Positions 1,525 to 23,458 of a stretch of DNA of 64,000 nt are shown here, piece after piece. The stretch is taken from NCBI RefSeq assembly GCF_002797495.1, contig NZ_PGEZ01000002.1, forward strand, positions 434,001 through 498,000, in the 5' to 3' direction. A model generated the notes under the pieces. It did no database searches and was not told the DNA's origin. It saw nothing but the letters and a program-made list of their open reading frames with translations. A program made the translations under genes and the position numbers. This DNA comes from Mumia flava (GTDB lineage Bacteria; Actinomycetota; Actinomycetes; Propionibacteriales; Nocardioidaceae). Each line of letters opens with the position of its first letter. Position 1 is the stretch's first letter.

Positions 1525-1553
1525 CGGAACCCTCTCGTCCTCCCGGAGCACTC

Positions 1554-7757: not shown

Positions 7758-7766
7758 CATCCCGCT

Positions 7767-9938
7767 ATGCCGGTCCCAGGAGCAGACTTCGACATTCTCG
7801 GCGTGACGATCGCTCGGACCCCGCCGATCGACGGCGTCGTTCACCTCACCCTCGAGCCGGCTCCGCGGGCGCTCTACGGCCTGAATGGCGTCGGAAAAAC
7901 GCGGCTCCTGCGGACAATCGCGCAAGCACTTCACGGAGTTGGCGCGGAACCTGGGCTCCCGGACGTGCCCACCGACGAGCGCCTCGATGTGCACATCAGA
8001 CTGCACGGAAGCCTCCCGCCCCATCTGGAGAGGGCTATTGGGACGTATGCCGATAAGCTCAGGAGGCAACTGCGAGAACTCGGACACGACGCGACATCCA
8101 CACACCGCGCGCTCATCGAACAGGTAGTCGACCTGGCCGCGCAGCTACGGCGCGCAGAACTGTCCGACCTCGCCCGCAACAATGACTTCCCGCCTGGCGA
8201 CCTGGGGCCGTGGAAGGAGCTGGACGACCAGCGCGAAAGGGCGCGCCAAGCCCTGACGGAGGCCGCGACCAATGGGAGACTAACGCTCCGCGCCGTAGGC
8301 TCAGATTCTGATCCACGGTGGCAGATCTTCGTAGCATGTTCGCCTTCGGATGTCGTCTCGGAGCGGGTCCTCACAGAGACCGACCGGTGCTTTCACGAAC
8401 TCAGACGCGATGCCGCCAGGGGACACTCGGTTCCCGACATGTTCGAGATCGCGTACTGGGGAACGTCCGGGAGCCCCCGGTTCCTGGCAGCCCTTCCTCG
8501 CACCTTGCAGGTTCCTGCGCTCTTGATCGGAGAGGTTGGCGCTGGTCGATGGCACGAGTTCTCGAGGTCGGAACGCGGGACAACTCGCGTTGTCCGCGAC
8601 TGGTACGACGGGTTCACGCTCGCCACGGTCACGGGAGACGTTCCCACAGCGCAGAATGCCGATGCCTTCACCCTCGAGCATGTGCTCTCGAGGACTGAAG
8701 GAGTCGAGTTCGGAGCACTCGAGTGGGACTCAGCCGAGCTAGACGCAGAACTCGCTGCCCACCTCCAGGAGCTGGAAGCGCGGGCCAACATGTTTCTCCA
8801 AGTAGTCATGCCGTCCCCACCTGCCCTGACATGGGATATGGGATCTCCGGAGGACTGGCTGCGAGGGCGTTCGCCTCGCTGGCGAGCGGATGGGCTGGAC
8901 CTTAGCCACGTCTCCGCCGCCCAGAAGCGGTGGATAACATTGAGCACATCGATGGCTGCCGTCGATCCAACTGAAGACCCTCCCCACATCGTTCTCATCG
9001 ACGAGCCAGAGGCGGGACTGCACCGGCTGGTTGAGCATCGACTGGCTGCGGGACTGGGCGCCTGGTCAGCGACGAACAGCGCGGCAGTGTTGGTCGCTAC
9101 GCATTCCCCGGACCTCCTCAGTTCGCCCGCAGTTGAGAGCACGTTTGTCACCCGCGACTCCAGCATGTCCGTCGAGCTCCGAAACGTACCTCTCAGTCTC
9201 GTGGACGGACACTCCACCCTTCGGTCGGCGCACGAGCTCGGCCTGTCCGTCGGTGATCTGTGGGCGCTCGCCCGCGTGACCGTCGTGGTCGAAGGCATTC
9301 ACGACGAGTTCGTATTCAAGTCATTGTTGCGAGGAGACATCGACGCAGCACCCGCTGGGATTCTTCCCATCCACGGTGGGGCACGCCTCCGGTCTCTGGC
9401 AGAGGCACGGTTGGTGATGACTGGCACGGACTCGCAGGTCCTCATTGTGCTGGACGATCTGACGGTCTCGGAAGGCAATGATGCGTTGGCCCGCATCAAA
9501 TCGGCGGCCGCAGGACCCGATCCGGCGCAACTCCGGGCGGTGCTCGAAGAGGTGCGCGTGAAAGGACAGAAGCACGACTCGCTCTTGTTCCTTCACCAGT
9601 TCGCCAAGGTCGCGGCGGAACTCGGGCATCTGGATCGCGTTTCCATCCACGGTTTGGCGTATCCAGACGTCATCTGCTATCTCGACCCGGAAACAGTCCT
9701 AACATCGGAGCACCCGTGGGAGACACTGATCAACCGCTGGACCCGCGACGCCGCGCCCGAGCCGCCGAAGAACCTCAAGAAATGGCTGCGGCGTGAAGGA
9801 CTGCTGCCGGATGACCAGCAACTGATCGATGAAGCGATTGAGCGTGGCGCAATCCAGATGGAGCAGGAGGGCCGCGGTCTCCATCGTGACCTCGTTGCCC
9901 TCGGCTCGCGAATCACCGAGCTGGCGCTCGTTCGCTGA
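7767..9938 (+). CDS. OLD-like AAA ATPase with TOPRIM domain
   Basis: A 723-residue protein with an SMC/ABC-type ATPase head and a C-terminal TOPRIM domain, as in OLD-family nucleases. Walker A is GLNGVGKT (residues 38-45) and Walker B is IVLIDEPEAGLH (about 408-419). An ABC-signature-like SAAQKRWITLS precedes Walker B. TOPRIM landmarks are VVVEGIHDEFVF (about 505-516) with the conserved glutamate, and VLIVLDDL (about 557) with the acidic pair. The insert between the Walker motifs (about 75-160) is charged and probably coiled-coil. It is the last gene of the operon, 9 nt after the helicase, and ends 49 nt before a convergent MazG-like gene. Known OLD-type proteins such as GajA nick or cleave DNA; the exact activity here is not visible from sequence. 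Confidence 0.85.
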   Translation: MPVPGADFDILGVTIARTPPIDGVVHLTLEPAPRALYGLNGVGKTRLLRTIAQALHGVGAEPGLPDVPTDERLDVHIRLHGSLPPHLERAIGTYADKLRRQLRELGHDATSTHRALIEQVVDLAAQLRRAELSDLARNNDFPPGDLGPWKELDDQRERARQALTEAATNGRLTLRAVGSDSDPRWQIFVACSPSDVVSERVLTETDRCFHELRRDAARGHSVPDMFEIAYWGTSGSPRFLAALPRTLQVPALLIGEVGAGRWHEFSRSERGTTRVVRDWYDGFTLATVTGDVPTAQNADAFTLEHVLSRTEGVEFGALEWDSAELDAELAAHLQELEARANMFLQVVMPSPPALTWDMGSPEDWLRGRSPRWRADGLDLSHVSAAQKRWITLSTSMAAVDPTEDPPHIVLIDEPEAGLHRLVEHRLAAGLGAWSATNSAAVLVATHSPDLLSSPAVESTFVTRDSSMSVELRNVPLSLVDGHSTLRSAHELGLSVGDLWALARVTVVVEGIHDEFVFKSLLRGDIDAAPAGILPIHGGARLRSLAEARLVMTGTDSQVLIVLDDLTVSEGNDALARIKSAAAGPDPAQLRAVLEEVRVKGQKHDSLLFLHQFAKVAAELGHLDRVSIHGLAYPDVICYLDPETVLTSEHPWETLINRWTRDAAPEPPKNLKKWLRREGLLPDDQQLIDEAIERGAIQMEQEGRGLHRDLVALGSRITELALVR

Positions 9939-9987: not shown

Positions 9988-10272
9988 CTACGCCCGATGC
10001 TTCTCCGCGTTCAGCTCCATCTTCCGCCGCGCCGCCTCCGCGAGGTCGACGCCAACCACGTCCGCCAGCCGTACGAGGTAGAGCAGCACGTCTGCCATCT
10101 CCTCCCCCACCCGCGTCCGCAGCGGCTCGTCGCCAGCGAGCTCCCGCGCATCGTCCGCCGGCAGCCACTGGAACAGCTCTGCAAGCTCGCCCACCTCGCC
10201 GGTGAGCGCCAGCAGCAGCGACTTCGGGTCGTGGAACCTCTCCCAGTCCCGCTCGGCGGTGAAGGCCCGCAT
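9988..10272 (-). CDS. MazG-like nucleotide pyrophosphohydrolase, probably N-terminally disrupted
   Basis: A 94-residue ORF with the all-alpha NTP pyrophosphohydrolase core: LTGEVGELAELFQWL carries the ExxE pair and EEMADVLLYLVRLAD the ExxD pair that bind magnesium. The expected N-terminal residues LDQLRDLM are encoded just upstream of the ATG at 10272, but no start codon lies in that frame. The natural ATG at 10301, 13 nt after the DUF2075 stop, is one base out of frame, so a one-base deletion near 10297 is likely. The C-terminus also stops shortly after KMELNAEKH, earlier than in typical homologs. These enzymes cleave (d)NTPs to monophosphates. Functional status is uncertain. Confidence 0.6.
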   Translation of the reverse strand: MRAFTAERDWERFHDPKSLLLALTGEVGELAELFQWLPADDARELAGDEPLRTRVGEEMADVLLYLVRLADVVGVDLAEAARRKMELNAEKHRA

Positions 10273-10314
10273 GAGGTCGCGGAGCTGGTCAGGTCGGACA
10301 TGGGCTGCACTCTC

Positions 10315-11991
10315 TCACGCGCGTTCGGGCACCAGCGACTCCAGCATCGCCTGGGTCTCCGCGTCGGTCGAGTAGACGATGGTGCCGCGCATCCCCCGCG
10401 TGAGCAGCACCTTGTACGCGTTGCGGATCGCGCGGTCGAACTCCTCGTACGACCCGCGCTTGACCGCCGAGTCGTGGCTCCTGTCCGGCTGGGCGACCCA
10501 ATGGTCGGTCCGCCAGACGAGATCGGGTCCGAGAATCACGCCGGCGTAGTCGTACTCGAAGCCCTGAGCCGTGTAGATGCACCCCACCTGGTCGAAGCCG
10601 GCCGGATCGGTCGCCCAGAACGGCGTCCCCGGCGCTCCGGCGTGCGAGGACGCCTTCTTGTTGTTCCAGGGGCGGTGCCAGGAGCCGATCTCAACGTCCG
10701 GCGCGAGCCCACCGCCCTTGATCGGGTCACTCCACTGCCAGCAATAGCCGGCCGCGATCCGCGCGCCGTACCCCTGCTCGAGGACCGACCGCAGGTGCTC
10801 CTCCATCGGGCTCGGCGCGTCGGCGACCTCCAGGTCGAAGCCGTCATCGCCCTCCCACGGGATCGGCCCGCCGCCCTCCAGCCCGAGCAGCCGTAGAACC
10901 CACCGCTCGTACGCGCGGCTGCCGCCGCACCGGAACTGACCGTCGAGCGAGGTCACCCGCGTGTCGAGCCCCAGCGATCGCGCCGCAGCGCGGATGTCCT
11001 CGACGGTGCCGATCTCCCCCGGCCGTACGACCTGGTGCTCGTCGAGCAGGAACACCGGGACGCGCGCGGCGTCGATGAGCTCGGCGACCTGCGGCTTGCC
11101 GGTCCGCTCGCCCGCCTTCGTGTAGCGGTTCGCGGAGGTCTCCCGTAGGCGGTGGGCCTCGTCGCAGATCAGGACGTCGATCCCGTTCTGCTGCGCGGTG
11201 ACGAACTGGTTGAAGTACTTGAACATCCCCTTCACCCGCGGAGCCCTGGCGCCTGCGACGCGACGGAGCGTCTGGGTGAAGGCGCTGGATCCGGTCGCGT
11301 GCAGCGCCGTCATCCCGCGGCGCGACAGCTCACCGAGGAGCGACAAGGCGATCACGCTCTTGCCCGAGCCGGGCCCACCGGAGACGACGAGCACCTCCTT
11401 GGTGTTGAGGTGATGCGCTCGCTCGACCGCCCGGAGGACGAGGGAGTACGCGACCTCCTGCTCGTCGAGGAGGACGAACTGCTCGCGCCGCTGAACCTCC
11501 TCAGCCGCGAGCGCCATCAGTTGCTTGCTCGGGCGTACGGCGGAGTCGAGCAGGTGGTCGGCCGCCTTCGCTCCCGGCTCCGGCGAGAGCTTCGTCCGGA
11601 GGTAGTCGAGGAACGCCCCACGGCGCTGACCCGTGAAGAGGCGTCCCTGCTCGGACTCCGGGAGCTCCCAGAGGTCGGCGATGTCGAGGTCGGTCGCGTT
11701 GTGGAGATACGCGACGCCAGCGAGCTGCGTCGTGTCCCCAGCGAGCGACGCCACGAAGTCCGCGATGTGTGTGCAGTAGCGCCGCACCTGCTCCATCGGG
11801 TGCAGCCGTTCCCCCGCGCCGTCGAGCTCCACGACGACGTCGGAGTCCTCCAGCAAGTGCGCCCGCGACCACTGCTTCAGCTCGACCACGACGTACGAGT
11901 CGTCGCGCGTCCTTGGGTGCGTTCCGCAGAGGACGACGTCGGCGCGCTTGCTGGTGAGCGGGAGCTGGTACTCGACGAGGGCCTTCGACAT
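10315..11991 (-). CDS. DUF2075/Schlafen-like helicase with N-terminal nuclease part, 5'-truncated reading frame
   Basis: A 558-residue open frame. It starts within a nuclease-like region (DDSYVVVELKQW, about residues 29-40, similar to a PD-(D/E)XK core), then carries an SF1-type ATPase: Walker A GGPGSGKS (about 205-212), Walker B VLICDEAHRL (about 270-279), QFRCGGSRAYERW, and the C-terminal YTAQGFEYDYAGVILG. This architecture is that of DUF2075 proteins. The family normally has about 65 more residues before EYQLPLTSKR; these are present upstream but broken by three small indels (see 11992-12180). The ATG at 11991 directly follows an in-frame TGA, so this may be a pseudogene or produce a truncated protein. 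A MazG-like gene follows. Antiviral function is plausible by family and location, not shown. Confidence 0.65.
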   Translation of the reverse strand: MSKALVEYQLPLTSKRADVVLCGTHPRTRDDSYVVVELKQWSRAHLLEDSDVVVELDGAGERLHPMEQVRRYCTHIADFVASLAGDTTQLAGVAYLHNATDLDIADLWELPESEQGRLFTGQRRGAFLDYLRTKLSPEPGAKAADHLLDSAVRPSKQLMALAAEEVQRREQFVLLDEQEVAYSLVLRAVERAHHLNTKEVLVVSGGPGSGKSVIALSLLGELSRRGMTALHATGSSAFTQTLRRVAGARAPRVKGMFKYFNQFVTAQQNGIDVLICDEAHRLRETSANRYTKAGERTGKPQVAELIDAARVPVFLLDEHQVVRPGEIGTVEDIRAAARSLGLDTRVTSLDGQFRCGGSRAYERWVLRLLGLEGGGPIPWEGDDGFDLEVADAPSPMEEHLRSVLEQGYGARIAAGYCWQWSDPIKGGGLAPDVEIGSWHRPWNNKKASSHAGAPGTPFWATDPAGFDQVGCIYTAQGFEYDYAGVILGPDLVWRTDHWVAQPDRSHDSAVKRGSYEEFDRAIRNAYKVLLTRGMRGTIVYSTDAETQAMLESLVPERA

Positions 11992-12503: not shown

Positions 12504-13484
12504 CTACTCGACCCGGTCCACGGGCAGCAGGACAGCGATCAGTTCATCGAGTCCGCAAACGCGGCGGGCTTCCGTGCAATCGGCTCGAAACCGGACGGCT
12601 GTGACGCCAGGGGGCGCCGCCGCGATCCTCGGAATGGAATCCACGTCGAGGCAGGCCGCGGACTCAATGGCCTGGCCAACGTCGAAACACCGCTCGGATG
12701 ACCGGGTCCAGTCGGGCCCGAGCGTAGCGGCAACCAAGTGATGCAACGTCATCTGCCTCGAAGCATCATTTGCCAAGTCCGACTCGAGTTCTCCTACCAA
12801 CTCGCGGACCGAAGTCCCAGAGTTAGTCTCAGTCGTCATCAGCGACAGAACTAGTACGCGCGCAGAAGGCAGCGGTAAGAGTTGCTCAAGGGCGAACTCA
12901 TGGAGCCGAACGTCACGCGTAGTCGCTTTGACGTCCAACCTAAAATCGTCGCCGGCAAAGTCAAACCGCGAGTCAACGTAGGGATGCCAATAATCGAGGA
13001 GCTTGTGGCCATCGGCGGCCCGGGCCATTACAAACAACTCACCCCACAGGCCCAGCACACTTCCGCGAGCCGGGGTCGAAGGATCAAAAAGCTGGACGAA
13101 CCTGCGCATTGCTGCGCTAACGCTGCCGTCAGTGGGCGATGTCCCGATAAGCCGGATAAGAACCAGAACAACGTCCAGAAATGCTGGAGTCAACTCATCC
13201 TCACCAACACGAAGGCGGACGACGCCAAAGTCACCCTCTACCTTGTCGCGTCCTTCCGTCTCTACTACGCACCTAAGACGCGGGTCCATCGAAATTCTTC
13301 TTAACCTCGTTGGGGGATCCGGCGTAGGATCTGGTGGAGTGAGAAGAACGATCGAGCCCTCGGAATCACGACCAATTCGGTAAGGCGGATCGCCAGGTAG
13401 CGGGGCAACCAGGAACACGTCGCTCGGCCCGACCGGTCGATCGACTCCGGCAAGAAGGCCCTTTAGTTCGTCGGCGGATGTCAC
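12504..13484 (-). CDS. PD-(D/E)XK motif protein (DUF4420), restriction-like nuclease
   Basis: A 326-residue protein with a restriction-endonuclease-like core: GLWGELFVM (E149), then SRFDFAGDDFRLDVKATT with D184 and K186 forming the acidic-x-K part. This organisation matches DUF4420 PD-(D/E)XK proteins found beside Z1 helicases and MutL/MORC-type ATPases. I chose the GTG at 13484, which overlaps the Z1 stop as GTGA; the in-frame ATG at 13559 lies inside the Z1 gene. It is the third and last gene of a coupled leftward operon. Its predicted role is the DNA-cleaving subunit, guided or activated by the Z1 and MutL-like partners; that is inference from family context. Confidence 0.82.
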   Translation of the reverse strand: MTSADELKGLLAGVDRPVGPSDVFLVAPLPGDPPYRIGRDSEGSIVLLTPPDPTPDPPTRLRRISMDPRLRCVVETEGRDKVEGDFGVVRLRVGEDELTPAFLDVVLVLIRLIGTSPTDGSVSAAMRRFVQLFDPSTPARGSVLGLWGELFVMARAADGHKLLDYWHPYVDSRFDFAGDDFRLDVKATTRDVRLHEFALEQLLPLPSARVLVLSLMTTETNSGTSVRELVGELESDLANDASRQMTLHHLVAATLGPDWTRSSERCFDVGQAIESAACLDVDSIPRIAAAPPGVTAVRFRADCTEARRVCGLDELIAVLLPVDRVE

Positions 13485-15691
13485 TCTGCATCTACCTGGA
13501 GAAGAGCTCCGCCCGCGAGGCCGGAAGGGACTCGAATGGAGAGCCCAGCCGCCTCCCATGACGGTCCTTCAGCATCGGATCTCGAGACTACGTGATGTAC
13601 TTGAATCGAAGTTCGATCCTCGGTGTAGAACGCCATGTCGCCGATGTAGCGACCTTGAGGAGACCTGCCCTGCTGAAGATTGTTCACCGTTTGCAGATCC
13701 GCCCTTGTAGCGCGTTCGCGAACCTCAAGATCGTCCATAAGGTACACGTCGGCAAGCAGGGAGGGATCTTGGTCGACCCGTGCCTGGAGTACGAGTATCA
13801 ATTGCTGAAGTCCCGCCCGGTCTGTCGAGCGGCCATACCAGTCCGCAAGCAACTCAGTAAGAAGAGTCTCTAGCGGCACCGTGAAGACGGTATTACGCCG
13901 CGCCCCTTTTCGAGCGTCTCGCGGATCCGTCTCGCGACGGCGTCCGTGGTGCGTTTGGAATGTCTCGACCGCAGCAAGGTTCAACAAACCGTCCCGTCCA
14001 AGATGGGCAACGCTAGCGACGTTCGACCACTGCTCTCCCCGCACGCCGCCATGCAGGTAGGGCAGATCAATTACCGCACGCCTAGTCGGCTTATACTCGG
14101 GGTTGAGAAGCATCGTGCGCGTCCACTCCTGCAGTGAGCGTCCCTCTCGATCGACCGCCTGCAGGTCCGTACGAAGATTCTCCTCATGATCAACATAGTG
14201 TTCGAATGCCGCCGCCATTGTCGCAGATAGCCATACGCGGCATAGCGAACCGTATGCCGCTTTGTATCCGAAGAAGCGGGCCCGCTGTTGAAGAGTATCC
14301 ACGTTACCGACGCCCAATCCCCGCGGCATGTACGTGACAGCCAAGCCTTCGACCGTGAAACCTCGGTCCAGCTTGTTTCCACCAATCAGAATCCATGATG
14401 GCGCGGTGCCCCATCGGATATCGCTGTCGGCAGGAGTTCCTGAGTTGACCGTTCTCACCTGCGTGCTCGTGATCCAGAACGGCAGGTTGACCAATAAATC
14501 ATCTAAGGGCGGAAGGGGATTGCTAGATTTCTCGGAAAGATTCAAGTACGCCGGAGTAAAGTACGCCTCCACAAGCTCATCGCGATCCGCTCCTGGCAAC
14601 TTGAGAAGTGACTTCCAACTCCTAAGAAGCCCAGTCACAAAAGATGCGTAAACCGAATGAAGATCTCGGCCGTGCGACGGATGAACCAGCATCGAGGTGT
14701 GGCTCCGCCTGCCTCGGATCGAGCGAACGAGAAGGTATGTTGCTAGAGCCGATTCAAGTGAGCTTGGCGGCTCGGTAGGGGAGGGATCGAGAGCTTCTTC
14801 AATCTCGTCGCTGGACATTTCTTGGACGAACGTCGACCTATGGTCCTTGAAGAAATACTGACCGCCCGTGTATCCCCTGCCCGGCGTAAGGACGGACACA
14901 AACTCGGGAGAAAGGGTATCGGCGATATTCACCAAGAGTGGGGCCTGCGGCGTAGCGGTGTACATCACGTATGAATGTCTGGGAATCGCGCTTCGCAGCG
15001 ATGCAATTGCCGCATATGTGGCGGAAGGCTCTTCTTCGCCTGGAGCCGCGTTCAAGCCGGCTTGGTCAGCCTCATCATCAATCACAAGCACCGCGCTCTT
15101 TGCGAGATTAACCCCACTTCGTGCGATATTCTCGAGTACCTCCTTCACCTTCCCCAGACGATTGCTGTTCTTCATAACAGTGATGAGGACTGTGCGCTTG
15201 AACCACGGAGGGGTCTCGGGGTCCGAAAACTCGCGAACGTAACCGGATAAAGCTGCGATTTCGGCCGGTGTGGCACTCGGATTGCTGGTGAGATACCACG
15301 GCGACATACCGCCCTCGCGTTCAGTTTCCAGGTCGGTTGCCAGGCGAGCGGATGTCTGCTCGTGTAGATTCCGCTTGGTGCCCGCCAACAGGATCACAAT
15401 TGGGAAGCCGTTGTCTCTTGCGAGCGCGATCAGCGTCGTGAACGACAGTGTCTTGCCGCTCTGAACGTACCCGACAACGAGACCGGTGCGGGAGGCCGGT
15501 TGCGCAGTTTCCGGCCCCACGCAACGGGAAAGAACGCCCGCGGCTTCTCTCAGGACAAGACTTCTTGCCGCATCGTCCGTCAACGCCCGTGAAAGAAGGT
15601 CGTTAGTCTCCTCGCCCGAAACCGGCCGCCACAACGCGAGTCGATCATCTCCCGGCGCCGATGAAGCATGTATCGTTTCGTGTATGTTCAA
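13481..15691 (-). CDS. Z1 domain superfamily 2 helicase-like ATPase
   Basis: A 736-residue protein with Walker A GYVQSGKT (residues 74-81), Walker B AVLVIDDEADQAG (about 200) and YTATPQAPLL (about 250) in the first RecA domain. The hallmark Z1 region follows: GGNKLDRGFTVEGLAV, YMPRGLGVGN and DTLQQRARFFGYK, which supply the motif V/VI equivalents. Z1 proteins are helicase-like ATPases known mainly from restriction-type and antiviral loci together with MutL/MORC ATPases and DUF4420 nucleases, exactly the neighbours here. The start lies 9 nt after the MutL-like stop; its own stop overlaps the DUF4420 start. Base composition is visibly less GC-rich than the flanking chromosome. Confidence 0.9.
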   Translation of the reverse strand: MNIHETIHASSAPGDDRLALWRPVSGEETNDLLSRALTDDAARSLVLREAAGVLSRCVGPETAQPASRTGLVVGYVQSGKTLSFTTLIALARDNGFPIVILLAGTKRNLHEQTSARLATDLETEREGGMSPWYLTSNPSATPAEIAALSGYVREFSDPETPPWFKRTVLITVMKNSNRLGKVKEVLENIARSGVNLAKSAVLVIDDEADQAGLNAAPGEEEPSATYAAIASLRSAIPRHSYVMYTATPQAPLLVNIADTLSPEFVSVLTPGRGYTGGQYFFKDHRSTFVQEMSSDEIEEALDPSPTEPPSSLESALATYLLVRSIRGRRSHTSMLVHPSHGRDLHSVYASFVTGLLRSWKSLLKLPGADRDELVEAYFTPAYLNLSEKSSNPLPPLDDLLVNLPFWITSTQVRTVNSGTPADSDIRWGTAPSWILIGGNKLDRGFTVEGLAVTYMPRGLGVGNVDTLQQRARFFGYKAAYGSLCRVWLSATMAAAFEHYVDHEENLRTDLQAVDREGRSLQEWTRTMLLNPEYKPTRRAVIDLPYLHGGVRGEQWSNVASVAHLGRDGLLNLAAVETFQTHHGRRRETDPRDARKGARRNTVFTVPLETLLTELLADWYGRSTDRAGLQQLILVLQARVDQDPSLLADVYLMDDLEVRERATRADLQTVNNLQQGRSPQGRYIGDMAFYTEDRTSIQVHHVVSRSDAEGPSWEAAGLSIRVPSGLAGGALLQVDAE

Positions 15692-15700
15692 GCCGCTCGC

Positions 15701-17245
15701 CTAATCCTTCTTTGATAGGTACCCGAGAAGAATACTGTTGACGCTCCGAATGACTAAAGATGGCATGCGCGCACCTTCCTTTCGCGCAAGTTCCTGCCCC
15801 AGGCCCAGCGCAACTGCAACTCGCCAAACCGGCTCCAGTTCTTGACCTGGTAACTCACAGTACGCTCGCATGAACGGATGAGACTGGTTCACCTTTATGA
15901 TCACGTGAGGCTCCCCGGTTGACCCGACATCAGTGGCGACACCGAGCCAATCATCGTCTCCTTCGTCCGAAACCAGCCTAAGCGATACCTTCCATACCGC
16001 ACCGTCGATCGGCATCCCCAACTCACGATCCACGTGAATTTGCGGACCTGCATTATTGCCGACAGTCGAGCTATTATGCTCGAACGTCGCTTCGACCGGC
16101 ACAGCCGGCGGGCTAGTCAGTAAGTCGGGCGCTGCAAGCAGCGATGATGCGATGTTTCCCGCTGCCGTTTCGGCTTGCCGCGTGGAACCCTTCGAAAGGG
16201 TCCGGGAACGATAATTCTGTGCCTGCTTCAATAGCGGCAGATCTTCATCTTCTAGTTCGGTTCGCAGCAGTTCGACAAACTCGTCTTCTTCGTCGTGCCA
16301 CACAAGTGCGTCTTTCGTGTAGGTCACGTCGAACTCGTCCATGTGAAGCTCGCCAAAAAGCCGCTGCGACTGGAAAGTGTTCCCCGCACCGAAGACTCGC
16401 TCGGGTCTGTATGTATCCTCGCCCGCACCGGTCACGACCTTGTCACGATAGAACAGCGCGAGTCCAGCCATCGACGTTGAGCCCGTCTCGCGAATCGCAA
16501 CGAAACCTAGGACCCGCCTCCCTGACCGCAGGGTAACGTCGACCGGTCGGCGCCACTCAATTGCGCCACCGTGAGGGTCCTTCCAGAGCGGGGCTGTCAA
16601 GACTGCCGGTTCGTCGTACTCTATCCGCTCACCATTGAATACAATGTCGACGTCGCCGCGCCTGATGAATTGGCGATAGATCGACCCGAGATACTGTCGA
16701 ATCTTCCCTACCGTTCGCCGCCTCGGTGTGCGGTGCAAACTCGTCATCCTGATCTCGGTTCCGTGTCGATCCCACGGTGCGACGGACTCCCGGACGACCA
16801 GGTTCTCTTCGTGTGCCTCAACGATCGCCGGAACATCGAACAGAACGGTCCGTTTGCATTCCTCGCCTATCGAACTGGATTCCAACGTCCAGCTGCGAGA
16901 GAACCAACAACACGCGGCCTTCATTCCGATGCCGAACTGTGAAAGGCCGCTCGTGTCCGCGGGTGGCTCTCCCACCTGAAAGGCTCGCTGCCAGTCAGCC
17001 ACCGAGATCCCGGCGGCGTTGTCGCGGACCGTGATCATCCCGCCCTCCGTCGGATCAACCACGATCTCGACCCGCAGCCGGTAGTCTGATCCATGAAGGT
17101 CGCGAAGGCGGTCACGGCTCGCAACGTAACTCTGAATCGAGTTGTCGACTAGTTCGCCAAGGGCATACCACGGCTGATACTTCATGTGTGGGAACAGTCC
17201 CAACATGCCGACGCCAGGTCGGATGCTGACGGTCTCCTCAGTCAC
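15701..17245 (-). CDS. MutL/MORC-type GHKL ATPase
   Basis: A 514-residue protein with an N-terminal GHKL ATP-binding fold. The N box is ELVDNSIQSY (E31, D34, N35), the G1 box VRDNAAGISV (about 74-83) and the G2 region LSQFGIGMKAA (about 101-111). The following S5-like region contains RHGTEIRM and a basic stretch. The C-terminal 150 residues are not a MutL endonuclease domain that I can identify; no DQHAAHERxxYE-like motif is visible. Prokaryotic MORC/MutL ATPases of this kind are associated with restriction-modification and Z1 modules. First gene of the leftward three-gene operon; a divergent promoter region of about 90 bp separates it from vsr. Confidence 0.87.
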   Translation of the reverse strand: MTEETVSIRPGVGMLGLFPHMKYQPWYALGELVDNSIQSYVASRDRLRDLHGSDYRLRVEIVVDPTEGGMITVRDNAAGISVADWQRAFQVGEPPADTSGLSQFGIGMKAACCWFSRSWTLESSSIGEECKRTVLFDVPAIVEAHEENLVVRESVAPWDRHGTEIRMTSLHRTPRRRTVGKIRQYLGSIYRQFIRRGDVDIVFNGERIEYDEPAVLTAPLWKDPHGGAIEWRRPVDVTLRSGRRVLGFVAIRETGSTSMAGLALFYRDKVVTGAGEDTYRPERVFGAGNTFQSQRLFGELHMDEFDVTYTKDALVWHDEEDEFVELLRTELEDEDLPLLKQAQNYRSRTLSKGSTRQAETAAGNIASSLLAAPDLLTSPPAVPVEATFEHNSSTVGNNAGPQIHVDRELGMPIDGAVWKVSLRLVSDEGDDDWLGVATDVGSTGEPHVIIKVNQSHPFMRAYCELPGQELEPVWRVAVALGLGQELARKEGARMPSLVIRSVNSILLGYLSKKD

Positions 17246-17320
17246 GGCACTCCCTGAATCGTGTGGCTGTGCTCACCACCCTATTCACCATGCGCGAGTT
17301 TTGTGCAGGATCCAAGATGC

Positions 17321-17328
17321 GAGGGAGG
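17321..17328 (+). promoter_or_regulatory. Ribosome binding site setting a TTG start for vsr
   Basis: GAGGGAGG, 8 nt before a TTG at 17337. The ATG at 17184 in the same frame lies inside the divergent MutL-like gene and has no such site. Confidence 0.65.
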
Positions 17329-17336
17329 TCGCCACT

Positions 17337-17873
17337 TTGATCTCGGACGCCGAGGACACACCCGGGGGGGTCGTTCAAGGCAGGTCGCCAGGCGAGCCTG
17401 ACCGGGTCCGGCCCGAGCGCGCCGTGAGCCTGCGCATGGCGATACGACCGCGCCGTGACACGGCCCCGGAGCTCGCTCTTCGGCGCGCCATGCACGCTCT
17501 AGGGCTGCGCTATCGGTTGCAGTGGGCACTACCCTGGAACAGGCGTTGCAAGGTCGACGTCGTGTTCACGAGAGCCAAGGTGGCGGTTTTCGTCGATGGT
17601 TGCTTCTGGCATGGCTGTCCACGTCACTGCGTTCAACCCCAGAGGAATGGCGACTGGTGGCGGTGGAAAATCACGCGGAATCAGGAACGTGACCAAGTCA
17701 CGACTCAGTCACTAGAGCGTGAGGGGTGGACCGTTCTGAGGTTCTGGGAGCATGAAGACCCCCAGGTCTGCGCAGATGTCGTCTATGAGCGGGTCATGGC
17801 CGTCGAATCACAGGAAGGTCTGGCGACGCCAGGACAGCATCAACGAGGCTCTGGCCGCCCTGCTCAGCGATGA
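17337..17873 (+). CDS. vsr: Very short patch repair endonuclease (Vsr)
   Basis: A 178-residue protein with the Vsr core: MAIRPRRDTAPELALRRAMH, RCKVDVVFTRAKVAVFVDG, CFWHGCPRHC and WWRWKITRNQERD, then GWTVLRFWEHED. The FVDGCFWHGCP block holds zinc and active-site residues of the family. Vsr nicks DNA at T:G mismatches made by deamination of 5-methylcytosine, so it fits the adjacent C5-cytosine methyltransferase. The start is taken as TTG at 17337 from its ribosome site; it is divergent from the MutL-like gene. Its last 80 bases overlap the 3' end of the methyltransferase on the other strand, so transcription from each gene runs antisense into the other. Confidence 0.85.
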   Translation: MISDAEDTPGGVVQGRSPGEPDRVRPERAVSLRMAIRPRRDTAPELALRRAMHALGLRYRLQWALPWNRRCKVDVVFTRAKVAVFVDGCFWHGCPRHCVQPQRNGDWWRWKITRNQERDQVTTQSLEREGWTVLRFWEHEDPQVCADVVYERVMAVESQEGLATPGQHQRGSGRPAQR

Positions 17874-19095
17874 GATCCGCGTCGCGCGCGACATGGCGGC
17901 GAATCGCGAAGTAGGCTACCCCAATGTTGATCGCGTTCCCGAGTTGTTTGAACGAACGCGAGTCTGGCTGATGGTCCAGTTGAAACCAATCTGGGAAGCC
18001 TTGGAGTCGTGCTGCCTCACGCGGACTCATTCGACGGCCGAGGGGACCAATGAGAGGTGTCTGCGCCATGGCGACGAGCGCTGGCGAGTACGTGAGCTTC
18101 TTCGCTCGAATGCCCGAAGGCCGGAGGTGCAGGAGGCACTGATCGAGATCCCGTGGCGAGTCCTGCGCCTGCCATTCGAGTTTCTGTCGACTCAGTGGAA
18201 AACTGTTGAGTCGAGGATTTGCTCTTAACCAGGCCCTAATGATGGACCGATGGTCGCAGTAGAAGTCGATGTTCTTCTGCTCGAGCACCTGCTTCCAGCG
18301 CGGGGCATCCGGGTCAACCACTGCGTCATCGGACCAATACGTCGACCACAATGGAAACCCTGGAAGGCGAATATCTCTCGTTCGGCGAAGGAAGTCGTTC
18401 CAGACGTCCAGCCACTCTCGTTCCTCGCTGGAGAACCGATATCGCGAGTGCTCCACTGATTCATCCGGGTCCACGATCTGCTGCAAGAGGTCCCATGCAT
18501 CAGGAGACCATGACAGGTCTGGTACTCGAGCAACGGATGGCTCCACGTGAACATCCCGCACTGCGCGCTCGCCGACATACGTGCCCATAATGTAAACCCG
18601 ATCGCGTGACTGCGGCGCTCCGCCCACGGTCGGACTAAGTCGGTGAGGACTGATGACGCACGGCGTCGCGGATACGCGATAGCCCGCTTCACGAAGGCCT
18701 CCGATGACCTCTCTCCAGGTCGACTGCTGTCTCGGCCCAGCGATGTTGCGGACGTTCTCTAACACTACGAGCGGTGGCCGATAGCGCTTCAGAATCTTGA
18801 CGATCTCGGTGAACAGTTGCCCTCGTCGTTCCTCCATTCCGCGTTGCCGCCCTGACTTGCTGAACGGCTGGCAAGGAAACCCCCCCGCCAGGACAGAGTG
18901 GTGACCGATCTCTTCGAGACGCGGCCCAGCCATCTCCACGACGTCGTGCTCCGGGTCAACCCCCCAGTTGCGCTTGTACGTTTCCCGGGCTGCCTCATCA
19001 AGCTCGACCGCCAGCGTCAGATCGCCCCCAAGCGCACCCAGGGCAGCATGGAAACCGCCTATGCCAGCGAAGAGGTCGATGTACGAGAATGACAC
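17794..19095 (-). CDS. dcm: DNA (cytosine-5-)-methyltransferase
   Basis: A 433-residue C5-cytosine methyltransferase with motif I DLFAGIGG (residues 7-14), motif IV GGFPCQPFSKSG with the catalytic cysteine C75, motif VI VVLENVRN, motif VIII QSRDRVYIMG (about 170) and motifs IX-X AARLQGFPDWFQ and QLGNAINIGVA near the C-terminus. The target-recognition region is about residues 230-350. It transfers a methyl group from SAM to C5 of cytosine in a recognition site that cannot be read from the sequence. Convergent with vsr with an 80-nt overlap. It may protect host DNA from the MutL/Z1/DUF4420 module, although it lies on its own transcript from the far end. Confidence 0.92.
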   Translation of the reverse strand: MSFSYIDLFAGIGGFHAALGALGGDLTLAVELDEAARETYKRNWGVDPEHDVVEMAGPRLEEIGHHSVLAGGFPCQPFSKSGRQRGMEERRGQLFTEIVKILKRYRPPLVVLENVRNIAGPRQQSTWREVIGGLREAGYRVSATPCVISPHRLSPTVGGAPQSRDRVYIMGTYVGERAVRDVHVEPSVARVPDLSWSPDAWDLLQQIVDPDESVEHSRYRFSSEEREWLDVWNDFLRRTRDIRLPGFPLWSTYWSDDAVVDPDAPRWKQVLEQKNIDFYCDHRSIIRAWLRANPRLNSFPLSRQKLEWQAQDSPRDLDQCLLHLRPSGIRAKKLTYSPALVAMAQTPLIGPLGRRMSPREAARLQGFPDWFQLDHQPDSRSFKQLGNAINIGVAYFAIRRHVARDADLIAEQGGQSLVDAVLASPDLPVIRRP

Positions 19096-19429: not shown

Positions 19430-19486
19430 CGTTGCGCGTTTACTCGTCACATCCTGACGAAGGTTCTATGCCTGCCAAAGCGACAG

Positions 19487-19520
19487 CGAGTGGGGCGCCC
19501 CCTCGGGAGCGCCCCACTCG
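19487..19520 (-). terminator. Hairpin terminator after nrdJ
   Basis: A 12-bp perfect GC-rich stem (CGAGTGGGGCGC at 19487-19498 pairing with 19509-19520) with a 10-nt loop, 11 nt beyond the nrdJ stop. It may also stop rightward transcription from the small gene at 19175. Confidence 0.75.
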
Positions 19521-19531
19521 TTGTCAGTCCA

Positions 19532-22498
19532 TCAGCTGCAGCCGCTCGTCGCGCCGCAGCCCTCGCACACGTGGCAGCTACCCGCCGGCCGCATCTTCGT
19601 CCCGCAGGTGAAGCAGAGCGGGGCGTCGACCTCAGTGCCGGAGATCACCTGCAGCAGCTCGGCTGAGGTGTGCGCCGAGCGCGGTGCGGGCTTGGCGGAC
19701 TCCGCCATGATCTCCGCGTCGTCGGCGTCGATCTGGGCTTCGCGCTCGAGTTCGGCGACGGAAGCGTCTCGATCACTCGCTTCGCTCGCGCCTCGACGGT
19801 CGGTGTCCGGTGCCGGTGAGGACTTGAGCGACTCCGACTCCGGGATCTCCTCGTCCTCCGCGGGGAGGTACGAGCCGGTGTCGAGCTGCCGCTGGCGCTC
19901 CTCGGCCGAGTAGATGCCGATCTGCGACCGCACGTCGAACGGCAGGTAGTCCAGCGCGAGCCTGCGGAAGATGTAGTCCATGATCGACTGGCTCATCCGC
20001 ACGTCCGGGTCGTCGGTCAGACCGGCCGGCTCGAACTTGAGGTTCGTGAACTTCTGCACGTACGTCTCGAGCGGCACCCCGTACTGGAGGCCGATCGACA
20101 CCGCGATCGAGAACGCGTCCATCACGCCGGCCAGGGTCGAACCCTGCTTACCGAGCTTGAGGAACACCTCGCCGAGACCGTCGTCCGGGTACGAGCCGGA
20201 GGTCATGTAGCCCTCGGCACCGCCCACGGTGAACGACTGCGTGATCGACGGCCGCTTCTTCGGGAGCCGCTTGCGGGTCGGCTTCTCGATGACGACGGTC
20301 TTGACCTCGGGCTCGGCCGGGTCTCGATCACTCGCTTCGCTCGCGCCTCGACCATCGGCATCAGCGGACTTCTTCTTCTCGACCGACAGCGGCTGGCCGA
20401 CCTTGCAGTTGTCGCGGTACACCGCGAGTGCCTTCAGGCCGAGCTTCCAGCCCTGGAAGTAGATGTCCTGGATCTCCTCGACGGTCGCCGTCTCCGGCAT
20501 GTTGACCGTCTTCGAGATCGCGCCCGACAGGAACGGCTGCGTCGCCGCCATCATCCGGACGTGGCCCATCGGCTTGATGGCCCGCTCCCCCATTGCGCAG
20601 TCGAACACCTCGTAGTGCTCCGGCTTGAGCCCCGGCGCGTCGATGACGTGTCCGTGCTCGGCGATGTACTCGACGATCGCCTCGATCGTCTCGGTCGTGT
20701 AGCCGAGCTTCTTCAGCGCGGCCGGGACCGTCTGGTTGACGATCTGCATCGACCCACCGCCGACGAGCTTCTTGAACTTGACCAGCGAGAAGTCCGGCTC
20801 GATGCCGGTCGTGTCGCAGTCCATCATGAAGCCGATCGTGCCGGTGGGCGCGAGCACCGACGCCTGGGCGTTGCGCCACCCATTCTTGGTGCCGATCTCG
20901 ATGCCCTTGGCCCACTGCTTCGTGGCCTCGCGGTGCACGGCGATGTCCATCGCGTGCATCGTGCGGACCGCGTCGTTGGCCGCCTGGTGCTTGCGCATCA
21001 CCCGAGCGTGCGGCTCCGCGTTCTGCTTGAAGCCGTCGTACGGGCCGACGACGCCGGCGAGCTCCGCCGAGCGGCGGTACGACGTGCCGGTCATCAGCGA
21101 CGTGATCGACGCGGCGAGCGCGCGGCCGCCGTCGGAGTCGTACGCGAGGCCGGACGCCATCAGCAGCGCGCCGAGGTTCGCGTACCCGATGCCGAGCTGG
21201 CGGAACTTCCGCGTGGTCTCGCCGATCGCCTCGGTCGGGAAGTCCGCGAAGCAGATCGAGATGTCCATCGCGGTGATGATCAGCTCGACGGCCTTCACGA
21301 ACGTCGCACTGTCGAACGACCCGTCGTCCTGCAGGAACTTCAGCAGGTTGAGGCTCGCGAGGTTGCACGACGAGTTGTCGAGGTGCATGTACTCAGAGCA
21401 CGGGTTGGACGCGGTGATCCGACCGGTCTCCGGCGTGGTGTGCCAGTCGTTGATCGTCGTGTCGTACTGCAGACCCGGGTCGGCGCACTCCCACGCCGCC
21501 TGCGCGATGTCGGCGAACAGCTTCTTCGCGTCGACGGTGTCGATGACCTCGCCGGTCGTCCGGGCGCGCAGCCCGAAGTCGGTGCCGTCCTCGACCGCGC
21601 GCATGAACTCGTCGGTGACGCGGACGGAGTTGTTGGCGTTCTGGTACTGGACCGAGGTGATGTCGTCCCCGCCGAGGTCCATGTCGAACCCGGCGTCACG
21701 CAGCACGCGGATCTTGTCCTCCTCGCGCGCCTTCGTCTGGACGAACTCCTCGACGTCGGGGTGGTCGACGTCGAGCACGACCATCTTCGCCGCACGTCGC
21801 GTCGCGCCGCCGGACTTGATCGTCCCCGCCGACGCATCCGCGCCGCGCATGAAGGAGACGGGACCGGACGCCGTACCGCCCGAGGAGCGCAGCAGCTCCT
21901 TGCTCGAGCGGATCCGCGAGAGGTTCAGGCCGGCGCCGGAGCCGCCCTTGAAGATCAGGCCCTCCTCCTTGTACCAGTTCAGGATCGAGTCCATCGAGTC
22001 GTCGACGGCGAGGATGAAGCACGCGGACACCTGCTGCGGGCTGGAGGTGCCGACGTTGAACCACACCGGGCTGTTGAAGCTGAAGACCTGGTGGAGAAGC
22101 ATGTACGTGAGCTCGTGCTCGAAGACCTCGGCGTCGGACTCCGTGGCGAAGTAGCCGTGGTCCTTGCCGGCCTTCACGTAGGTGAGCACGACGCGGTCGA
22201 GCAGCTGCTTGAGCGACTGCTCGCGGTCCTCGGAGCCGACGGCCCCGCGGAAGTACTTCGTCGTCACGATCGTCGACGCGTTCGCGCTCCAGAAGTCGGG
22301 GAACTCAACACCCCGCTGCTCGAAGACGGTCTCGCCGGTCTTCCAGTTCTGCTGCACGACGTCGCGACGCTCCCACGTCACGTCGTCGTACGGGTGCACA
22401 CCCTCGGTGGTGTAGACCCGGTCGATCGTCAGGCCCTTGCTCCGCCCCCGTGCCCGGCCGCCCTTGCGACCGGTCGGACCGCTGACCGTCTCCGTCAT
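19532..22498 (-). CDS. nrdJ: Vitamin B12-dependent (class II) ribonucleotide reductase
   Basis: A 988-residue adenosylcobalamin-dependent ribonucleotide reductase, making deoxyribonucleotides without oxygen dependence. Family signatures are NSPVWFNVGT, SACFILAVDDSMDSI, NPCSEYMHLDNSSCNLASLN, LAPTGTIGFMMDCDTTGIEPD, and a C-terminal cysteine cluster (LCFTCGTKMRPAGSCHVCEG) for zinc and re-reduction. Two linker regions carry the same in-frame peptide [10 protein letters not shown], at about residues 716-726 and 901-910; both are encoded by copies of a 32-bp dispersed repeat. The start at 22498 lies 93 nt after nrdR on the same strand, so the two are probably co-transcribed from the NrdR-boxed promoter. 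A hairpin terminator follows. No cobalamin riboswitch was seen. Confidence 0.96.
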   Translation of the reverse strand: MTETVSGPTGRKGGRARGRSKGLTIDRVYTTEGVHPYDDVTWERRDVVQQNWKTGETVFEQRGVEFPDFWSANASTIVTTKYFRGAVGSEDREQSLKQLLDRVVLTYVKAGKDHGYFATESDAEVFEHELTYMLLHQVFSFNSPVWFNVGTSSPQQVSACFILAVDDSMDSILNWYKEEGLIFKGGSGAGLNLSRIRSSKELLRSSGGTASGPVSFMRGADASAGTIKSGGATRRAAKMVVLDVDHPDVEEFVQTKAREEDKIRVLRDAGFDMDLGGDDITSVQYQNANNSVRVTDEFMRAVEDGTDFGLRARTTGEVIDTVDAKKLFADIAQAAWECADPGLQYDTTINDWHTTPETGRITASNPCSEYMHLDNSSCNLASLNLLKFLQDDGSFDSATFVKAVELIITAMDISICFADFPTEAIGETTRKFRQLGIGYANLGALLMASGLAYDSDGGRALAASITSLMTGTSYRRSAELAGVVGPYDGFKQNAEPHARVMRKHQAANDAVRTMHAMDIAVHREATKQWAKGIEIGTKNGWRNAQASVLAPTGTIGFMMDCDTTGIEPDFSLVKFKKLVGGGSMQIVNQTVPAALKKLGYTTETIEAIVEYIAEHGHVIDAPGLKPEHYEVFDCAMGERAIKPMGHVRMMAATQPFLSGAISKTVNMPETATVEEIQDIYFQGWKLGLKALAVYRDNCKVGQPLSVEKKKSADADGRGASEASDRDPAEPEVKTVVIEKPTRKRLPKKRPSITQSFTVGGAEGYMTSGSYPDDGLGEVFLKLGKQGSTLAGVMDAFSIAVSIGLQYGVPLETYVQKFTNLKFEPAGLTDDPDVRMSQSIMDYIFRRLALDYLPFDVRSQIGIYSAEERQRQLDTGSYLPAEDEEIPESESLKSSPAPDTDRRGASEASDRDASVAELEREAQIDADDAEIMAESAKPAPRSAHTSAELLQVISGTEVDAPLCFTCGTKMRPAGSCHVCEGCGATSGCS
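19766..19797 (-). repeat. 32-bp dispersed repeat copy inside nrdJ (distal)
   Basis: On the + strand it begins GTCTCGATCACTCGC and ends GCGCCTCGAC. In the nrdJ frame it encodes [10 protein letters not shown] near residue 905. Same unit as 20321-20352 and the intergenic copies at 25228, 26756, 26807, 27323, 27373, 27423 and 55314. Confidence 0.85.
20321..20352 (-). repeat. 32-bp dispersed repeat copy inside nrdJ (proximal)
   Basis: Identical over its length to the copy at 19766 and in the same reading phase, encoding [10 protein letters not shown] near residue 720, in the linker before KKRPSITQSFTVGG. Confidence 0.85.
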
Positions 22499-23215: not shown

Positions 23216-23458
23216 AACCGTACGCCCGGTCCCCAGGGCTTGCAAACCCACTCTCGCGTGTTGGTCCGACATTTTTCTGAGGTGTCCGTCTGCGCAGGTC
23301 AGAGGCGGTTCGGGCCGCCCTGGCTCGGCGTGTCGCGGCGCGCAACCTGGTCCTTTCCGCTGGTCGAGGCGGAGCGAAGCGGCTCCTTCCGCTGGTCGAG
23401 GCGGAGCGAGGCGGCTCCTTCCGCTGATCGAGGCGGAGCGAAGCGACGATCGAGACCC
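23216..23458. other. Non-coding stretch upstream of nrdR
   Basis: Holds no supported gene. Its right half is filled by the 32-bp tandem repeat at 23360-23455. Confidence 0.5.
23360..23455. repeat. Three 32-bp tandem repeat units
   Basis: Units start at 23360, 23392 and 23424, each beginning CTGGTCGAGGCGGAGCGA (third copy CTGATCGAGGCGGAGCGA). The last runs into CGATCGAGACCCTC. It resembles the reverse orientation of the 32-bp dispersed element (GGTCGAGGCG ... CGATCGAGAC) and abuts the stop of the DUF6343 gene. Confidence 0.8.

What the first reader, a model, noticed from the sequence alone, without database searches (positions are those of the whole stretch)
12504..19095. MutL/MORC-Z1-DUF4420 module with Vsr and a C5-methyltransferase but no AIPR
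The leftward operon MutL-type ATPase, Z1 helicase and DUF4420 nuclease is flanked by divergent vsr and a convergent methyltransferase. This matches restriction-type MORC/MutL modules described by Iyer, Abhiman and Aravind and the MZA antiviral system of Gao and colleagues. The AIPR component is missing, so it is a variant in which methylation and T:G repair may provide self-protection.
Basis: partly seen in the sequence, partly recalled or inferred. Interest (0 to 1): 0.6.

Follow-up and report, generated by a model that had tools for sequence, protein, structure and literature searches.

The report
MORC-Z1 restriction operon with methylase, Vsr
The window holds what looks like a bacterial anti-virus DNA restriction set of an already described kind, whose near relatives also lack an AIPR gene; the less expected part is that its methylating enzyme may recognise the same DNA site in very distant bacteria.

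Summary
The ATPase's closest solved folds are MORC proteins. AIPR is not 'missing': none of 80 related loci has it (module Z1 in 79, methylase in 79, DUF4420 in 66, Vsr in 20). AIPR goes with a separate long-Z1 lineage (true MZA), and one such locus also carries Vsr and a C5 methylase, so methylation and Vsr do not stand in for AIPR. The operon type was described by Iyer et al. 2008, and an AIPR-free Z1/PD-(D/E)XK/C5-methylase system in 2022. Best reading: ATP-dependent restriction-modification; the methylase marks self, MORC-Z1-DUF4420 attacks unmarked DNA, Vsr repairs deaminated 5mC. Less expected: the methylase target domain is conserved in 73 of 78 loci across phyla, and the same methylase family serves another engine (DUF262 + long Z1 + DUF4420), at the same chromosomal site in a congener and beside the MORC gene in a Sphingomonas locus. 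The recognised sequence is unknown.

The parts
12504..13487 (-). DUF4420 PD-(D/E)XK nuclease (327 aa from GTG 13487; the longest ORF runs to 13559)
   Evidence: Pfam PF14390 7e-20. E174, D200, K211 and Q226 (longest-ORF numbering) conserved in at least 95% of 68 rows. AF2 pLDDT 93.7. C-domain aligns weakly with EcoRV (Z about 5) and the SPARDA nuclease (Z 5.6).
13481..15691 (-). Z1 superfamily-2 helicase/ATPase, short form, 736 aa
   Evidence: Pfam PF10593 8e-37. Motifs GYVQSGKT, DDEADQ, TATPQ and DTLQQRARFFG present. Same-strand Z1 directly downstream of the ATPase in 79 of 80 loci.
15701..17245 (-). [quoted passage not shown]
   Evidence: Pfam HATPase_c_3 2e-15. E31, D34, N35, D75-N-A-x-G, GxGMK and HxT conserved. 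AF2 pLDDT 89.1; VIA Z 24.3 to SMCHD1 and 22-24 to MORC2/3/4.
17246..17423 (.). divergent intergenic region between the ATPase gene and vsr (shared promoter region is an inference)
   Evidence: Follows from the vsr start chosen by homology; no promoter was tested.
17424..17873 (+). Vsr-type endonuclease, about 149 aa
   Evidence: Pfam PF03852 8e-17. Homology begins near residue 80 of the 229-aa ORF; D125 and H143 conserved in at least 95% of 21 rows.
17794..19095 (-). C5-cytosine DNA methylase; 3' end overlaps vsr tail-to-tail by 80 bases
   Evidence: Pfam PF00145 6e-59. PCQ and ENV motifs present. PADLOC DruM2 profile PDLC00034, 511 bits.
18046..18414 (-). variable-region/target-recognition segment of the methylase (residues 228-350; the name rests on its place between conserved C5-methylase motifs)
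   Evidence: 32% identity or more to the window in 73 of 78 loci, against 9-18% in 7 control methylases; alignment A4.
19482..19525 (.). 21-bp inverted repeat (90% complementary) between nrdJ and the methylase gene, terminator-like

Best explanation
It is a chromosomal, ATP-dependent restriction-modification system of the MORC/short-Z1/DUF4420 family. The C5 methylase marks one sequence in the host DNA. Foreign DNA without the mark is engaged by a MORC-Z1-DUF4420 complex: MORC dimerises on ATP and clamps or loops DNA, the Z1 helicase translocates or remodels it, and the DUF4420 nuclease cuts. Vsr is an accessory that mends the T:G mismatches left when 5-methylcytosine deaminates. Shown here: intact genes, conserved catalytic residues, conserved linkage and gene order, a MORC-like fold, a probable restriction-nuclease fold. 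Inferred: complex formation, the order of steps, restriction itself and the role of Vsr. Not located: the subunit that reads the site during cutting.
For: In 80 ATPase-selected loci, own-profile hits were Z1 80, methylase 79, DUF4420 67 and Vsr 20. In L046 the Z1 and DUF4420 belong to a second, opposite-strand engine, which leaves 79, 79, 66 and 20 for the module. 65 of 80 have all four main genes, 58 of them in the order methylase>ATPase>Z1>DUF4420 on one strand (less L046). The one locus without a methylase (L044) and one with a fragment (L079) are cut by contig ends. By record titles the loci span Actinomycetota, Pseudomonadota, Chloroflexota, Bacteroidota, Acidobacteriota, Planctomycetota and others (many are MAGs), and two lie on plasmids. 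Conserved catalytic residues. MORC-like fold. Methylase-core and ATPase distances correlate, r 0.78. A biochemically tested C5-methylase/R/Z1 trio (CglI, NgoAVII) has a Z1-protein ATPase that needs the R protein and unmethylated sites (passages). The nrdJ neighbourhood holds different restriction or helicase genes in congeners.
Against: No restriction, methylation or phage data exist for this locus. In 10 of 80 loci the module has no DUF4420 although the contig goes on; 2 of these have an HNH protein there and the other 8 no nuclease that I recognised directly downstream. Five of 78 loci pair the same ATPase with a different methylase, so the coupling is not absolute. The test for a partner that tracks the methylase target domain was negative. 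The best Foldseek match of DUF4420 in the PDB has E 0.27, and VIA Z values near 5 may mean only a common arrangement, so its fold rests on Pfam and motifs too. Foldseek itself ranks Hsp90-type TRAP1 above MORC3.
Confidence: 0.75

Rival explanations
1. It is an MZA system that lost its AIPR gene, with methylation and Vsr taking over self-protection.
For: Shared Pfam domains; PADLOC MzaC hit of 102 bits over residues 306-514.
Against: No AIPR in the 80 relatives as held, with a working positive control; the nearest AIPR in any carrier genome is about 23 kb away. Short-Z1 rows separate from AIPR-linked rows. MzaB 14 bits and MzaD none, against 329 and 83 bits for a true MZA locus, which itself has Vsr and a methylase.
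Confidence: 0.05
2. The MORC-Z1-nuclease set works by abortive infection or conflict sensing (for example of DNA ends or superhelicity), and the methylase and Vsr are linked but separate epigenetic genes.
For: Vsr is in only 20 of 80 loci. Copies of the methylase without an engine in the DNA held exist, one of them among virion genes. In 5 of 78 loci the methylase differs while the ATPase and Z1 stay.
Against: The methylase is in 79 of 80 loci, mostly as first gene of the same operon, which is hard to explain without functional coupling.
Confidence: 0.15
3. The locus is a decayed or silent island with no present activity.
For: The methylase is separated from the operon by a divergent vsr, unlike the common four-gene operon.
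Against: Five open frames with the conserved catalytic residues. The methylase/vsr(reversed)/ATPase layout recurs in Aeromicrobium and Nocardioides loci L021, L022 and L025.
Confidence: 0.05

Closest known systems
Third MORC operon type of Iyer, Abhiman and Aravind 2008 (PMC2292703; introduction parts 1 and 2 of 4 read)
   Same: GHKL-S5 ATPase, SFII helicase with the DThhQXuRhFG motif, RE-fold nuclease with an E-D-ExK motif, often C5 methylase and Vsr.
   Different: Nothing fundamental seen. The window has Q at one hydrophobic position of the helicase motif, D for E in the nuclease and K for R in the MORC S5 motif.
Putative Z1/PD-(D/E)XK/C5-methylase defence system of PMC9523054 (Nat Commun 2022; section 11 read)
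   Same: Core of Z1, PD-(D/E)XK and cytosine methylase; a type without AIPR linked to DNA-repair endonucleases and a type with AIPR.
   Different: Their Z1 protein is 925 aa; the window and its group have the short form (736 aa). Their figure and supplement were not available, so exact type membership was not checked.
MZA (Gao et al. 2020; not held in the library, recalled, plus the PADLOC profiles)
   Same: Z1, GHKL and DUF4420-type genes.
   Different: MZA has AIPR (MzaE) and a long MzaC; the window lacks AIPR, has a short Z1 and scores low on MzaB, MzaC and MzaD.
CglI / NgoAVII / BceSIV ATP-dependent type II RM (PMC4267653; passages read)
   Same: C5 methylase plus a DEAD-Z1 ATPase that works with a separate nuclease.
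   Different: The nuclease there is PLD+B3, no MORC ATPase is described in the passages read, and the NgoAVII methylase target domain hardly aligns (17% over 41 columns).
Druantia type II (PADLOC DruM2 profile)
   Same: The window methylase scores 511 bits on PDLC00034; four methylases of distant relatives score 223-269.
   Different: No DUF1998-type helicase among the 14 window ORFs scanned with Pfam.

Membership tests
Iyer 2008 third-type MORC operon | SFII/Z1 helicase with DThhQXuRhFG | tested here: met
   DTLQQRARFFG in the window, 10 of 11 positions fit; D465, Q468, Q469, R470, R472, F473 and G475 are at least 95% conserved in 81 rows
Iyer 2008 third-type MORC operon | RE-fold protein with E-D-ExK | tested here: met
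   E174, D200 and K211 conserved; window has DVK where the family consensus has EVK
Iyer 2008 third-type MORC operon | MORC S5 motif GhXhhpXXRhl | tested here: inconclusive
   Window GLALFYRDKVV has K for R; that column is R in 74 and K in 7 of 81 rows. Best fold matches are SMCHD1 and MORC
Iyer 2008 third-type MORC operon | linked cytosine methylase and Vsr (frequent) | tested here: met
   Both in the window; 79 and 20 of 80 loci
MZA | AIPR (MzaE) in the operon | tested here: not met
   Only AIPR in the genome is on another contig; none in the 80 related loci as held
MZA | MzaB, MzaC and MzaD at family-level scores | tested here: not met
   14, 102 and no hit, against 329, 650 and 83 bits for L011
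MZA | mzaA sigma factor | not tested
   Only known from PMC9523054 text
CglI/NgoAVII RM | R protein with PLD nuclease and B3 DNA-binding domain | tested here: not met
   Module nuclease is DUF4420; the PLD-like ORF at 2.7-4.6 kb is in another, opposite-strand gene set
CglI/NgoAVII RM | GCSGC specificity | not testable with these tools
   Target domains differ (17% over 41 columns); the site needs methylome data
Druantia type II | DruE-type DUF1998 helicase (recalled) | tested here: not met
   Not among Pfam hits of the 14 window ORFs scanned between 0 and 22.5 kb
Druantia type II | DruM2-type methylase | tested here: met
   PDLC00034, 511 bits, residues 2-428

The most novel reading that the evidence does not exclude
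The methylase writes one fixed 5mC mark, the same in distant phyla, and several different ATP-driven restriction engines (MORC + short Z1 + DUF4420; DUF262 + long Z1 + DUF4420; perhaps Druantia II) are built around that one mark. The engine can then be exchanged at a locus without self-cutting, and phages answer with a solitary methylase of the same target domain. Ordinary restriction systems, by contrast, diversify their specificity.
Probability: 0.4. Interest if true: 0.6.

Novelty: new member of a known kind. Interest (0 to 1): 0.35.

Why it matters
It corrects a plausible but wrong story (a system that lost AIPR) and separates two Z1 lineages that share domain names. If the methylase specificity really is fixed, one methylome experiment would give the recognition site for a family spread over many phyla. 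It would also let the role of prokaryotic MORC proteins in restriction be tested directly.

Tried and rejected
Tried without result: (a) Partial correlation of methylase target-domain distance with 40-residue windows of ATPase, Z1 and DUF4420 over 57 loci, to find the site-reading subunit: values between -0.25 and 0.19. (b) The five methylase-swapped loci: the ATPases of L057 and L091 fit the family consensus worse than any other locus and their Z1 fit worse than the 5th percentile; the other three are ordinary, and so is DUF4420 in the three that have it; too few to conclude. (c) Foldseek of the DUF4420 model: 0 matches at E 0.001 or below; its N-terminal domain had no convincing match, which shows nothing about novelty. 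(d) PDB sequence search: Z1 nothing at E 1; ATPase one chance-level hit, E 0.42. (e) viral-contig scan with the single ATPase: no relative. (f) E. coli genomes with the Pseudescherichia operon, near mode: no match. (g) The small E. coli plasmid methylase that I fetched (L155) matches the core only, with no target-domain hit; dropped.

Considered and rejected: the contig labelled phage (MT835579) as anti-restriction. It carries Vsr, the methylase and a short Z1 together, so it is the system itself. A recent methylase swap into the window locus: its methylase is nearest (43-53%) to those of the five loci that are nearest in ATPase and Z1.

Mended on checking: L046, first counted as a locus with Z1 and DUF4420, has these in a second engine. 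The module counts went down by one, and I raised the probability of the novel reading from 0.35 to 0.40 because L046 is a further case of one methylase beside two engines. The AIPR of Aeromicrobium massiliense was found to be on the same contig, about 23 kb away.

Literature searches run. Among the papers listed I saw no experimental study of this short-Z1 MORC family; most subscription papers are not held, so this is weak.

Full report
Observation. The five genes are at the stated places, and Pfam confirms DUF4420, Z1, HATPase_c_3, Vsr and DNA_methylase. From the lengths of relatives I place the DUF4420 start at GTG 13487, overlapping the end of Z1 by 7 bases. The Vsr start is placed at 17424 or 17436, which leaves a divergent gap between vsr and the ATPase gene. 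The methylase lies upstream of the operon on the same strand and meets vsr tail-to-tail.

Census. A four-row ATPase alignment (window, Rathayibacter plasmid, Hymenobacter plasmid, one actinobacterial locus) was used to scan one genome for each of 84,980 species. It found 258 relatives, of which the best 80 were returned. With profiles built from the hits of the window proteins, Z1 was in 80 of 80, C5 methylase in 79, DUF4420 in 67 and Vsr in 20 (positions). In L046 the Z1 (977 aa) and DUF4420 are on the other strand, behind a DUF262 gene, and the ATPase has no Z1 after it. The module counts are therefore 79, 79, 66 and 20. The locus without a methylase (L044) and one with a fragment (L079) are cut by contig ends. 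65 of 80 have all four main genes, 58 of them in the order methylase>ATPase>Z1>DUF4420 on one strand; 17 of 20 Vsr frames (stop to stop) lie within 300 bases of a module gene (less L046). 21 of 80 loci hold under 5 kb on one side. These 80 are the closest relatives only, so the counts apply to them. DUF4420 alone is rare: 9 places in 8 of 296 genomes of the phylum, the window included. Of the other eight places, Z1 is near in 8, a C5 methylase in 7 and Vsr in 5.

AIPR. The window genome has one AIPR gene, on another contig. Whole-genome searches found AIPR in 7 of 40 and 4 of 40 carrier genomes. A profile made from these AIPR proteins of 400 aa or more found none in the ORFs of the 80 loci, yet it did find AIPR in L011 and L012, which were not in its training set. 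L011 is a true MZA by PADLOC (MzaB 329, MzaC 650, MzaD 83, MzaE 265 bits) and also has Vsr and a C5 methylase. The window proteins score 14 (MzaB), 102 (MzaC) and no hit (MzaD). In a Z1 tree of 35 rows (window, 20 of the 80 loci and 14 others), 23 short-Z1 rows including the window form one group (97/88). Nine long-Z1 rows including the AIPR-linked ones form another (100/99), joined by the DUF262-linked long Z1 of L125 (98/95). Against a simple size rule: a 732-aa Z1 (L132) falls outside, with NgoAVII. Both are long branches, and the tree is rooted at the midpoint for drawing only.

Parts and fold. Of the columns conserved at 95% or more, the window has the consensus residue in all five proteins except at GHKL position 92. 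The AF2 model of the ATPase (pLDDT 89.1, 66 rows, being 65 of 80 relatives plus the window) gives VIA Z 24.3 to SMCHD1, 22-24 to ten MORC2/3/4 chains and about 19-21 to Hsp90-type chains. MutL is not among the 50 rows shown, which does not exclude it. Foldseek alone ranks TRAP1 first and MORC3 tenth. The AF2 model of DUF4420 (pLDDT 93.7, 61 rows, being 60 of 67 relatives plus the window) aligns over its C-terminal half with EcoRV (Z about 5) and the SPARDA nuclease (5.6). These are weak values. Its N-terminal domain of about 120 residues had no convincing match.

Nuclease exchange. 13 of 80 loci have no DUF4420 hit, and in L046 it belongs to the other engine. In four (L040, L060, L079, L087) the contig ends at or soon after Z1. 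L094 and L097 (Hymenobacter) have an HNH protein in its place (PADLOC HNH for L097). L026, L032, L036, L047, L053, L061 and L083 show no nuclease that I recognised directly downstream; L026 and L032 have Vsr.

Methylase. Identity to the window in the target-recognition region (columns 230-345) is 32% or more in 73 of 78 loci, nearly as high as in the rest of the enzyme (means over all 78: core 40.1%, target region 36.7%). Five loci (L057, L072, L083, L087, L091) have a different methylase (target region 8-19%, core 27-33%). Seven control methylases from long-Z1 loci and NgoAVII give 9-18%, and three further MORC loci 35-36%. The controls have a lower core identity (28-34%), so the comparison is not matched for overall divergence. 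Conserved target regions suggest, but do not prove, one recognition sequence.

Same methylase, other engines. Between nrdJ and the Schlafen/MazG genes, the congener G380 has DUF262 + long Z1 (914 aa) + DUF4420 + methylase + Vsr. Its methylase is 52% identical to the window's in the core and 44% in the target region. A Neorhizobium plasmid has methylase (in two frames) + DUF262 + Z1 + PD-(D/E)XK. In L046 (Sphingomonas) one methylase of this target type (38%) lies between DUF262-Z1-DUF4420 on one side and the MORC gene on the other. Of 22 viral contigs with this target domain, 8 carry the MORC ATPase, 7 of them with Z1 and DUF4420 too. The other 14 show neither ATPase nor Z1 in the DNA held, several being cut off. 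In L136 the methylase sits among virion genes, which would fit phage self-protection. Target-domain hits were found in 4 of 396 genomes of the phylum, the window included.

Genomic setting. In all five congeners the DNA similarity to the window ends at the nrdJ gene on the module side. The adjoining genes differ: a DUF262-Z1 system (L125), an FtsK-type gene (L126), an AspBHI/Mrr-type nuclease (L127), DUF1156 and helicase genes (L128), and genes I did not identify (L129). The Schlafen gene was seen again only in L125 and L127. Vsr genes lie in L125, L126 and L127. I read this as a defence hotspot.

Known work. Iyer et al. 2008 (introduction parts 1 and 2 of 4) describes this operon type, its methylases and its Vsr. 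PMC9523054 (section 11) describes a Z1/PD-(D/E)XK/C5-methylase system with and without AIPR. PMC4267653 (passages) gives the biochemical model for a Z1 ATPase in restriction. PMC12137116 (passages) shows a fused GHKL ATPase and PD-(D/E)XK nuclease defending against phage, both activities being needed. PMC5379612 (passages) and PMC8011034 (passages) give further Z1/DUF4420 and paraMORC-methylase-Vsr contexts. Gao 2020 is not held; it is cited from memory and through PMC9523054.

Verdict. A real, apparently intact member of a published kind. The AIPR-loss story is not supported. The open and testable point is the apparently fixed methylation specificity and its sharing among different engines.

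Noticed in passing
window 844-9938: Plus-strand gene set: unknown protein, DUF6361, PLD-like protein, 1062-aa helicase and an AAA ATPase whose C-terminal part looks like Toprim to me (no Pfam hit for that); may be another defence operon.
   Followed up: partly
window 9988-11991: Schlafen group 3 helicase with a MazG-like gene on the other side of the module; both genes are in congener L125 (about 80% DNA identity) and the helicase end in L127.
   Followed up: partly
L125-L129 (congeners, nrdJ neighbourhood): Genes next to nrdJ differ in each of five congeners, as at a hotspot.
   Followed up: partly
L011 4868-15274: MZA locus (MzaB-E) with Vsr and a C5 methylase attached.
   Followed up: yes
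L046 2846-11494: One methylase between a DUF262-Z1-DUF4420 set on one strand and a lone MORC gene on the other.
   Followed up: partly
L094 13918-14793; L097 13766-14689: HNH protein in place of DUF4420 after Z1 in Hymenobacter.
   Followed up: partly
L143 5227-8723; L150 7239-10754: Viral-collection contigs where the methylase lies beside two proteins without Pfam hits; perhaps a further partner set.
   Followed up: no
L136 7299-8591: Methylase of this family among phage head and tail genes.
   Followed up: partly
L001 697-2481: AIPR gene on contig C3 of the window genome, with no Z1 seen in the 3.8 kb held.
   Followed up: partly
window 19745-19803 and 20300-20358: Two copies (81%) of a short repeat inside the nrdJ coding sequence; a different 32-bp tandem repeat lies at 23355-23450.
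   Followed up: no
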